DNA from: Defluviicoccus sp.
GTDB lineage: Bacteria > Pseudomonadota > Alphaproteobacteria > MPNO01
Reading direction: 5' to 3'
NCBI GenBank assembly: GCA_028820505.1
Contig: JAPPIT010000078.1
Location: 1 to 50,188 of the forward strand
DNA: 50,188 nucleotides
Position numbers and translations under genes: made by a program. The notes under the pieces are model-generated. The model had not been told where the DNA came from. It saw nothing but the letters and a program-made list of their open reading frames with translations, and ran no database searches. Shown piece after piece: positions 15,143-17,388 of this stretch. The number at the start of each line of letters is the position of its first letter. Position 1 is the first letter of the stretch.

Positions 15143-15340
15143 GAAATGCTCCGGGGCCGATGCGGCGCGACGCCGGGCGTCCCGGCGGCGCGATCGGCCA
15201 TGTTGCGGCCGCCCCGGCAAGCGGCGCCATGGAAAGCCGGCCGAACGGATTGCGCTCCGTCCGATCGCGGTCGATCCGGCCGCCGAATTCCTTGCTTACC
15301 CTGGGCGTGGCCGTCATTTTCTCCAAATTCCGACGTCAGC

Positions 15341-15368
15341 GTGCACCGCCGGCCTTCGCCGGGTGCAC
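15341..15368 (-). promoter_or_regulatory. Inverted repeat in the rne upstream region
   Basis: GTGCACC (15341-15347) pairs with GGTGCAC (15362-15368), with a short inner GGC/GCC pair. It lies about 200 bases upstream of the rne start and could be an operator or a leader hairpin of the rne mRNA. Confidence 0.35.
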
Positions 15369-15450
15369 TGCCGGGGCGACATCGCGGGAGCGTGCCGCGT
15401 TCGCGATCGACCCTTGCCGATCACGCCTGCAACATAATGACGCCGGGGCG

Positions 15451-15456
15451 TATACT
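15451..15456 (+). promoter_or_regulatory. Candidate -10 box for the three-domain RidA operon
   Basis: TATACT matches five of six -10 consensus positions. No good -35 is seen 16-18 bases upstream, so this may need an activator. The implied leader is about 97 bases and contains a GCGCC-TTCG-GGCGC hairpin at 15492-15505. Confidence 0.3.
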
Positions 15457-15559
15457 CAACCGGTATCCCGCGAGAGGAGTCCGGCCCGGTTGCGCCTTCG
15501 GGCGCGGGTCGATAGACAATCCGGTCAACGCTCGCGACAGGATCGCCAAGGAAGGACTC

Positions 15560-16810
15560 ATGCGCGTCGAGGCCGTCAAGTCGGATATCCCGCAGCCGCT
15601 CGCCAACTACACCGAGGCGTTTTGCGCGGGCGGGCTGGTTTTTGCCGCGGGCCAGCTTCCCACCGATTTCAAGACCGGCATTCCGCCCGAAGCGCGGACC
15701 GACCCGGCCTTTCCCTATTACGGCTCGGACATCAAGAAGCGCACGCACTATGTGCTGAAGAACCTCGCGAAAACCTTCGAAGCGGCGGGTTCCTCGCTCG
15801 ACCACATCGTCAAGGCCCAGGTGTTTCTCGAGGATCTTAACGATTTCAATGCCTTCGACGAGGTCTGGAAGGAGTATTTCAGCACCCCGCCCGCGCGCAC
15901 GACGGTCGGCACCAGCGGTCTCCTGGTCAGGGACGCGATGATCGAGATCGACCTGATCGGCTACGTCCCGGGCGAGCTCGACTGCATCCCGGTCACGTCC
16001 GATGCGCCGCAGCCTCTGGCGAACTACACCGAGGCCTACCGGGTCGGCGGACTGGTTTTCGCCGCCGGGCAACTGCCCAGCGACTTCAAAACCGGCATCC
16101 CCGCCGAGGCGCGAACCGACCCGGCCTTTCCCTATTACGGCTCGGACATCAAGAAGCGCACGCACTACGTGCTCAAGAATCTCGCCAGGACCTTCGAGGC
16201 CGCCGGGTCCTCGCTCGACCACGTCGTCAAGGCGCAGGTCTTCCTCGAGGACCTCAATGAGTTCGATGCTTTCGACGAGGTCTGGAAGGAATATTTCGGA
16301 ACTCCGCCCGCGCGCACGACGGTCGGCACCAGCGGTCTCCTGGTCAGGGACGCGATGATCGAGATCGACCTGATCGGCTATGTCCCGGGCGCGTTCGATT
16401 GCACCGCCGTCAGATCGGATGCGCCGCAGCCGCTCGCCAACTACACCGAGGCCTATCGGCTGGGCGACTATGTCTTCGCCGCCGGCCAGCTGCCGAGCGA
16501 CTTCAGGACCGGCATCCCGGCCGAGGCGCGCACCGATCCGGCCTTTCCCTATTACGGCTCCGACATCAAGAAGCGGACCCGCTATGTCCTCGACAATCTC
16601 GCGCGCACCTTCGCCGCCGCCGGAAGCTCGCTCGACGAGGTGATAAAGGCGCAGGTCTTCCTCGAAGATCTGAACGATTTCAATGCCTTCGACGAGGTCT
16701 GGAAGGAATATTTCCGGACACCGCCCGCCCGCACGACGGTGGGCACGACGGGTCTTCTGGTCAGGGATTCGATGATCGAGATCGACCTGATCGGGGCGAT
16801 CCGGAGCTGA
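15560..16810 (+). CDS. Three tandem RidA (YjgF/YER057c/UK114) domains in one polypeptide
   Basis: The 416-residue protein consists of three RidA domains at about 1-139, 140-278 and 279-416. The repeat period is exactly 139 codons (417 bases). By eye domains 1 and 2 differ at about 15 of 139 positions. Each domain keeps the Tyr of LANYTEA, the substrate-carboxylate Arg of PPARTTVGT and the Glu of MIEIDLIG. The Ser of the E. coli ITSGQ segment is Ala in all three (FAAGQLP). RidA hydrolyses reactive enamine/imine intermediates to keto acids, and classical members are homotrimers of about 130-residue chains with active sites between subunits. A one-chain trimer is the obvious inference. The ATG at 15560 is preceded by AAGGAAGGA. 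It heads an operon with the two small proteins that follow. Confidence 0.93.
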   Translation: MRVEAVKSDIPQPLANYTEAFCAGGLVFAAGQLPTDFKTGIPPEARTDPAFPYYGSDIKKRTHYVLKNLAKTFEAAGSSLDHIVKAQVFLEDLNDFNAFDEVWKEYFSTPPARTTVGTSGLLVRDAMIEIDLIGYVPGELDCIPVTSDAPQPLANYTEAYRVGGLVFAAGQLPSDFKTGIPAEARTDPAFPYYGSDIKKRTHYVLKNLARTFEAAGSSLDHVVKAQVFLEDLNEFDAFDEVWKEYFGTPPARTTVGTSGLLVRDAMIEIDLIGYVPGAFDCTAVRSDAPQPLANYTEAYRLGDYVFAAGQLPSDFRTGIPAEARTDPAFPYYGSDIKKRTRYVLDNLARTFAAAGSSLDEVIKAQVFLEDLNDFNAFDEVWKEYFRTPPARTTVGTTGLLVRDSMIEIDLIGAIRS

Positions 16811-16819
16811 GGAGCGACG

Positions 16820-17116
16820 ATGGCCAAGTTTCTGGTTCTGGCGCGACCCAAGAAACCGTTGCCGCAAAAGGCCAACGTGGAGGGCGCGCGCGCCCAGTGG
16901 CGGGCGCTGCGCGACGAGGGCAGGGCCGAGGTCTATGAGATCGTCGAGGACAACGGCGCGGGCTTCGCGGTTTTGGTCGACGTCGAGGACCATGACGAGC
17001 TGATGGCCCTGTTGTTCCGGAACCCGGGCGGGAGCTGGGGCTCCTACGAGGTCTATCCGCTCGGCACGCTGGAGGGCGAGACCCGGGCGATGCGCGAAGC
17101 CGGAATCATCCCGTAG
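16820..17116 (+). CDS. Small protein, YCII / muconolactone-isomerase-like fold candidate (98 aa)
   Basis: A 98-residue protein starting MAKFLVLARPKKPLPQ. The pattern of a first beta strand, a helix (GARAQWRALRDEGR), a strand pair (EVYEIVEDNGAGFAVLVDVEDHDELMALL) and a late SYEVYPLGTL strand suggests a dimeric alpha/beta ferredoxin-like barrel of the YCII or muconolactone-isomerase type. I do not recognise a named family with certainty. It starts nine bases after the RidA gene. It is related to the next protein: both begin MAKFL and share VDVEDH-E-L and a final Y-[AIV]-[AL] segment. A role beside RidA, such as handling the same reactive metabolite, is inference. Confidence 0.8.
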   Translation: MAKFLVLARPKKPLPQKANVEGARAQWRALRDEGRAEVYEIVEDNGAGFAVLVDVEDHDELMALLFRNPGGSWGSYEVYPLGTLEGETRAMREAGIIP

Positions 17117-17133
17117 CGCTCAAGGAACGAATC

Positions 17134-17388
17134 ATGGCCAAATTCCTGATCATCAACCGTCCGCCGCCGCACCGCACCAAGGACGCGCCCGTGGGCCAGT
17201 GCGTCAACCATTTCGTTTCGCTGGGACAAAGCAACCGCGCTTCGGTCTACCCGATCGCCGGGCTCAAGGGCTATGCGACCCTGGTCGATGTCGAAGACCA
17301 CGAGGAACTGCGCGAGGTGGTGGCGGGCAACGCCATGGGGAATATCGAGGAATACCGGATCATCGCGCTTGCCGATCTTCGCGACTGA
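17134..17388 (+). CDS. Small paralogue of the preceding protein (84 aa)
   Basis: An 84-residue protein starting MAKFLIINRPPPHR. It aligns with the preceding 98-residue protein over the MAKFL start, a helix, an S-V-Y-P-I strand, TLVDVEDHEEL and the final strand EYRIIALADL. It is shorter by the C-terminal tail. The likely fold is a small ferredoxin-like barrel; the function is unknown. It lies 17 bases downstream of its paralogue, with an AAGGAACG ribosome site, and ends the RidA unit. A 17-base palindrome directly follows its stop. Confidence 0.78.
   Translation: MAKFLIINRPPPHRTKDAPVGQCVNHFVSLGQSNRASVYPIAGLKGYATLVDVEDHEELREVVAGNAMGNIEEYRIIALADLRD

What the first reader, a model, noticed from the sequence alone, without database searches (positions are those of the whole stretch)
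15560..16810. One-chain RidA trimer: three nearly identical RidA domains in one protein
Three RidA domains follow one another with a strict 139-codon period and essentially no linker. All keep the Tyr, Arg and Glu expected at the RidA active site. RidA is known as a homotrimer with active sites at subunit interfaces, so a covalent three-domain chain may fold as a built-in trimer. All three have Ala where E. coli RidA has Ser in the ITSGQ strand, which hints at changed chemistry. Covalent fusion would also allow the three sites to diverge.
Basis: partly seen in the sequence, partly recalled or inferred. Interest (0 to 1): 0.82.

Follow-up and report, generated by a model that had tools for sequence, protein, structure and literature searches.

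The report
Three-domain RidA protein, probable covalent trimer
This Defluviicoccus gene encodes three copies of a small imine-detoxifying enzyme joined in one chain, which probably folds into the three-part ring that the enzyme normally builds from separate pieces; the design was described in 2015, so this is a good, uncharacterised example and not a new kind of protein.

Summary
The gene at 15560-16810 (+) encodes 416 aa with three RidA (PF01042) domains at an exact 139-residue period and 83-91% identity; Tyr, Lys, Arg and Glu of the RidA site and interface are present in all three. It is not an assembly artefact: orthologues occur in four other Defluviicoccus MAGs, the isolate Aquabacter spiritensis and MAGs of two phyla. 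The reading is largely right but already published: Niehaus et al. 2015 named such proteins '3x-RidA' and presumed them covalently linked trimers. Added here: an AlphaFold2 model (pTM 0.84) whose best full-length matches are chorismatases (Z about 22), one-chain relatives of the YjgF trimer fold; site and interface residues invariant in every domain of ten members; and domains that group by lineage rather than position (concerted evolution). Two other three-domain Rid proteins in the genome have lost the catalytic Arg in all domains. The Ser-to-Ala 'changed chemistry' idea is not supported: Ala is common in single-domain RidAs. The gene precedes two muconolactone-isomerase/YciI-like genes; relatives lie near Liv-type transporters. 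Likely role: imine/enamine deamination in nitrogen-compound catabolism. New member of a known kind; modest interest.

The parts
15548..15556 (+). Shine-Dalgarno-like AAGGAAGGA
   Evidence: read directly; 3 bases before the ATG
15560..16810 (+). 3x-RidA gene, 416 aa (ATG to TGA)
   Evidence: PF01042 x3; coding GC pattern
15575..15967 (+). RidA domain 1 (residues 6-136); Tyr17, Lys85, Arg113, Glu129
   Evidence: HMM envelope; residues
15968..15991 (+). linker 1 (8 residues, GELDCIPV)
   Evidence: gap between HMM envelopes
15992..16384 (+). RidA domain 2 (residues 145-275); Tyr156, Lys224, Arg252, Glu268
   Evidence: HMM envelope; residues
16385..16408 (+). linker 2 (8 residues, GAFDCTAV)
   Evidence: gap between HMM envelopes
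16409..16801 (+). RidA domain 3 (residues 284-414); Tyr295, Lys363, Arg391, Glu407
   Evidence: HMM envelope; residues
16820..17116 (+). downstream gene 1 (98 aa), muconolactone-isomerase/YciI-like, probable same operon (9-base gap with GGAG)
   Evidence: PF02426 at E 1.8e-4, below cut-off; AF2 model matches YciI HI0828, TftG and ClcF at Z 8.6-8.9; linked in all five Defluviicoccus and in the Rhizobium Q54 MAG
17134..17388 (+). downstream gene 2 (84 aa), paralogue of gene 1 (about 36% identity)
   Evidence: alignment A2; linked in the same six genomes

Best explanation
The gene encodes a 3x-RidA: one chain whose three RidA domains close on each other as an intramolecular (pseudo-threefold) version of the RidA homotrimer, with three intact imine/enamine deaminase sites at the D1/D2, D2/D3 and D3/D1 interfaces. 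Shown here: architecture, conservation of all site and interface residues, wide but rare distribution, domain homogenisation, close linkage to two MIase/YciI-like genes. Predicted: the closed fold. Inferred: imine or enamine hydrolysis on an intermediate of a nitrogen-compound (perhaps N-heterocycle or aminoaromatic) catabolic pathway, with the small downstream proteins acting on a neighbouring intermediate.
For: Three PF01042 domains. Tyr, Lys, Arg and Glu invariant in each of three domains in ten members; the Lys-Glu pair is the interface salt bridge needed for Arabidopsis RidA trimers (K136-E182), and the Arg is essential for activity (PMC4433059). AF2 model pTM 0.84, mean pLDDT 78; best matches over about 280 residues spanning all three domains are chorismatases 5a3k/5ag3/4bps (Z 21.7-22.3, rmsd 3.4), then FBXO22 (Z 14.8), against Z about 14-15 for single RidA chains. 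Chorismatases and the FIST domain are described as sharing a pseudo-threefold fold akin to YjgF trimers. Every multi-domain Rid ORF met here, in three distinct groups, has exactly three domains; the one apparent two-domain ORF was cut by a locus edge and is three in full (the sample was drawn with a three-domain query, so it is biased). Context: SD-linked small genes with conserved linkage; Liv-type ABC transporter genes near the relatives L059-L063 and the single-domain L042, and a molybdenum hydroxylase in L062/L063.
Against: No solved structure of any three-domain Rid was found by sequence. No biochemical data. A chain could also assemble further or swap domains between chains. The pathway is inferred from mixed neighbourhoods; in Defluviicoccus itself the gene cluster sits between RNase E and an N-acetylmuramoyl-alanine amidase gene, which says little.
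Confidence: 0.72

Rival explanations
1. The three domains act as independent tethered RidA units that trimerise between chains (higher oligomers), and the tandem is only a dosage device.
For: High identity between domains and concerted evolution would also suit dosage. Some Rid proteins form larger assemblies (AmnE hexamer, title of PMC6742747).
Against: The predicted single chain already matches one-chain pseudo-trimers across all three domains. The count is three in each of the three distinct groups seen here; dosage alone should give twos and fours too, which PMC4433059 calls rare.
Confidence: 0.12
2. The protein is a non-catalytic or repurposed Rid scaffold with a new reaction, like chorismatase or AtzD.
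For: Best full-length structural matches are chorismatases; AtzD shows that concatenated YjgF units can gain new chemistry (PMC3758960); the G079 relative has lost Arg and Tyr in all three domains.
Against: All four site and interface residues are invariant in every domain of ten members; Pfam gives no chorismatase or AtzD family among its hits.
Confidence: 0.1
3. Assembly artefact: a collapsed or expanded repeat in one MAG.
For: Near-identical tandem repeats are prone to misassembly.
Against: Copies differ at 14-19% of nucleotides; five Defluviicoccus assemblies and the isolate Aquabacter spiritensis DSM 9035 show the same three-domain layout.
Confidence: 0.01

Closest known systems
3x-RidA (EF_0115 type; Niehaus et al. 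2015, PMC4433059)
   Same: Three RidA domains fused in tandem, presumed covalently linked trimer.
   Different: No structure or assay of a 3x-RidA was found in the held library. This family has an 11-residue insert per domain relative to most single-domain rows, homogenised domains and a conserved two-gene downstream partner in part of its range. EF_0115 itself was not compared here.
RidA/YjgF/UK114 homotrimers (TdcF, AtRidA)
   Same: Same domain, same Tyr/Lys/Arg/Glu residues at the intersubunit cleft.
   Different: Three separate chains instead of one; Ser instead of Ala before the Gly in many members, though Ala is common.
Chorismatases (5a3k, 5ag3, 4bps)
   Same: One chain with an overall fold like a concatenated YjgF trimer; best whole-chain structural match (Z about 22).
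   Different: 15-18% identity, different chemistry, diverged repeats.
AtzD/barbiturase 'Toblerone' fold (PMC3758960)
   Same: Proposed concatenation of three YjgF-family units.
   Different: One site in the central barrel, a metal site, four-stranded units; no Pfam hit to that family here.
2-aminomuconate deaminase (AmnE) and RutC
   Same: Rid-family deaminases in catabolic pathways; plausible model for the role.
   Different: Single-domain; the substrate of the present protein is unknown. The RutC model scores below its cut-off (135 against 169).

Membership tests
3x-RidA (PMC4433059) | Three RidA domains fused in tandem in one ORF | tested here: met
3x-RidA (PMC4433059) | Each unit belongs to the RidA subfamily rather than Rid1-7 | tested here: inconclusive
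   TIGR00004 250 bits, but summed over three domains (cut-off 106); the single-domain relative scores 84.6, below the cut-off
3x-RidA (PMC4433059) | Covalently linked trimer unit | tested here: inconclusive
   AF2 and structural matches support it; geometry not measured directly and no experiment
Active imine hydrolase Rid (RidA, Rid1-3) | Conserved Arg essential for imine hydrolysis | tested here: met
   Arg113, 252 and 391 invariant in ten members
Active imine hydrolase Rid (RidA, Rid1-3) | Imine hydrolysis in vitro | not testable with these tools
   needs a semicarbazide competition assay
RidA-type trimer | Interface salt bridge Lys-Glu (AtRidA K136-E182) | tested here: met
   Lys85/224/363 and Glu129/268/407 invariant; equivalence inferred from alignment spacing
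Chorismatase | Recognised by sequence as chorismatase | tested here: not met
   no such family among Pfam or NCBIfam hits at E <= 0.001
Chorismatase | Overall one-chain YjgF-trimer-like fold | tested here: met
   predicted model only, Z 21.7-22.3 over about 280 residues
AtzD/barbiturase (Toblerone) | Recognised by sequence as AtzD/TrzD family | tested here: not met
   no such hit at E <= 0.001
Muconolactone isomerase (downstream gene 1) | PF02426 above the gathering score | tested here: not met
   22.0 against 26.7 bits; the Rhizobium orthologue scores 26.2

The most novel reading that the evidence does not exclude
A distinct, horizontally spread 3x-RidA clade in which gene conversion keeps the three catalytic domains alike, so that a one-chain symmetric trimer with three equal sites is maintained, and which serves with a muconolactone-isomerase/YciI-like pair in an undescribed nitrogen-compound degradation pathway; in the same genomes, two other 3x-Rid groups have lost the catalytic Arg and become non-hydrolytic pseudo-trimers.
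Probability: 0.3. Interest if true: 0.5.

Novelty: new member of a known kind. Interest (0 to 1): 0.33.

Why it matters
No solved structure or assay of a 3x-RidA was found here. Because the three sites lie in one chain, single sites can be mutated one at a time, which homotrimers do not allow; that makes site cooperativity and which domain supplies which residue directly testable. The same genus also holds Arg-less 3x-Rid paralogues, a natural comparison for how concatenated Rid trimers drift towards new functions such as chorismatase and cyanuric acid hydrolase.

Tried and rejected
Antisense ORF 15314-16993: rejected as a shadow by codon GC pattern. Changed chemistry from Ala: rejected. Ala as an interface loss compensated by fusion: not supported, since the single-domain relative L042 also has Ala. 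Complementary loss of residues between neighbouring domains in the Arg-less groups, to infer interface order: no clean pattern. Plasmid-borne origin: only distant hits under 60% identity in the plasmid collection. Promoter and terminator scan around the operon: no promoter-like site, terminator-like sites at chance level. Synonymous divergence as a clock: fourfold sites look close to saturation, so only the 77-base identical run between D1 and D2 is suggestive. Literature for EF_0115 beyond PMC4433059: no further characterisation found. In the structural comparison of the small downstream protein, middling matches to many ferredoxin-like folds were not taken as evidence of function.

Full report
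Observation. The ORF at 15560-16810 (+) codes for 416 aa. Pfam finds three PF01042 stretches; HMM envelopes 6-136, 145-275 and 284-414 give an exact 139-residue period with 8-residue linkers. The domains share 83-91% aa and 81-86% nt identity. Further family members with the same layout are a Rhizobium sp. Q54 MAG (81%), a Hyphomicrobiales MAG (68%), the isolate Aquabacter spiritensis DSM 9035 (67%) and two Acidimicrobiia MAGs (62-63%). The finding is real and not an artefact.

Prior art. Niehaus et al. 2015 (PMC4433059) state that a subset of RidA proteins, termed 3x-RidA, has three RidA domains fused in tandem (EF_0115) and that these are presumably covalently linked trimer units; fusions of two or four are said to be rare. 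The finding is therefore a member of a named kind. No later characterisation turned up in the held library, and sequence searches found no solved chain longer than 165 residues.

Fold. An AlphaFold2 model from ten family members has mean pLDDT 78 and pTM 0.84. Its best whole-chain matches are chorismatases (5a3k, 5ag3, 4bps: Z 21.7-22.3, rmsd 3.4 over about 280 residues spanning all domains), followed among whole-chain matches by the FIST protein FBXO22 (Z 14.8); single RidA chains reach Z about 14-15 over about 115 residues. Foldseek ranks chorismatases first as well. The FIST domain of FBXO22 has been described as pseudo-threefold, with chorismatases and cyanuric acid hydrolases sharing that overall fold and possibly derived from YjgF trimer subunits; AtzD is described as a concatenation of three YjgF units. 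This supports a closed intramolecular trimer.

Active site. Tyr17/156/295, Lys85/224/363, Arg113/252/391 and Glu129/268/407 are invariant in ten members. Arg is essential for imine hydrolysis, while replacing Tyr or Glu with Ala had little effect in Salmonella RidA; the Lys-Glu pair is the trimer-interface salt bridge in Arabidopsis RidA. By spacing it matches Arabidopsis S92, which bonds to the backbone nitrogen of the active-site Arg across the interface and whose Ala mutant was prone to precipitate; that equivalence is my inference.

Evolution. On a domain tree the three domains of Hyphomicrobiales, Aquabacter and Rhizobium each group by genome, not by position (support 96/97, 87/96 and 100/99). 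In Defluviicoccus the D3s form one group and the D1s cluster together, so the triplication is older than the genus; D1 and D2 of the window share a 77-base identical stretch. The three Rhizobium domains nest among the Defluviicoccus D1s. Together this points to concerted evolution (or repeated re-triplication) with horizontal spread; the tree has long branches and weak deep forks. A single-domain relative (60% identity) exists in genome G033 (L042).

Paralogues. The same genome has two more three-domain Rid ORFs (L039 and L040); relatives of both were seen in the other members of the genus and, sporadically, in other genomes (G022, G008, G051). In both groups, and in the eroded relative of G079, the catalytic Arg is replaced in all three domains. 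The window family is the only one of the three in this genome that keeps it. It is also rare: 1 of 398 genomes drawn from the phylum, the window's own.

Context and function. Nine bases after the stop, with a GGAG site, lies a 98-aa gene and then an 84-aa paralogue; both follow the 3x-RidA in all five Defluviicoccus and in Rhizobium Q54. The first resembles muconolactone isomerase below cut-off, and its model matches YciI, TftG and ClcF modestly (Z 8.6-8.9). Other family members lie near Liv-type ABC transporter genes, an amidase, an FMN monooxygenase or a molybdenum hydroxylase. RidA-family enzymes are known from catabolic pathways (RutC, AmnE; PMC8113886 and PMC6742747, abstracts). The most likely role is imine or enamine deamination of a catabolic intermediate; the substrate is unknown.

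Verdict. Confirmed observation, mostly correct interpretation, known kind. Interest is modest: a tractable, uncharacterised protein with intact sites, next to Arg-less paralogues in the same genome.

Noticed in passing
L039:4840-6276 (-) (own genome C116): Second three-domain Rid ORF (period 132); catalytic Arg replaced by Ser in all domains, interface Lys lost in domain 1; next to an alpha/beta hydrolase gene and what look by eye like ABC-transporter genes. G051 (L044) carries two such genes in tandem.
   Followed up: partly
L040:2406-3698 (+) (own genome C159): Third three-domain Rid ORF, strongly diverged domains without the catalytic Arg; relatives in G022 and G008.
   Followed up: partly
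L041:6572-7804 (G079:C48): Full three-domain relative of the window protein (42-43%) that has lost Tyr and Arg in all domains and Glu in two: an eroded member of the same family.
   Followed up: partly
own genome G000: 35 PF01042 matches in one genome, a large Rid complement by general knowledge; not compared systematically.
   Followed up: no
window 16820-17388: Tandem pair of MIase/YciI-like small genes (about 36% identical to each other) tied to the 3x-RidA in Defluviicoccus and Rhizobium Q54; a third copy lies at G000:C56:4803-5078. Among 289 genomes sampled from the class only one weak match outside the window's own genome.
   Followed up: partly
L042:6833-7246 (-) (G033:C603): Single-domain relative (60%) with the same 11-residue insert, near LivK/LivH-type genes: candidate for the pre-fusion form.
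   Followed up: partly
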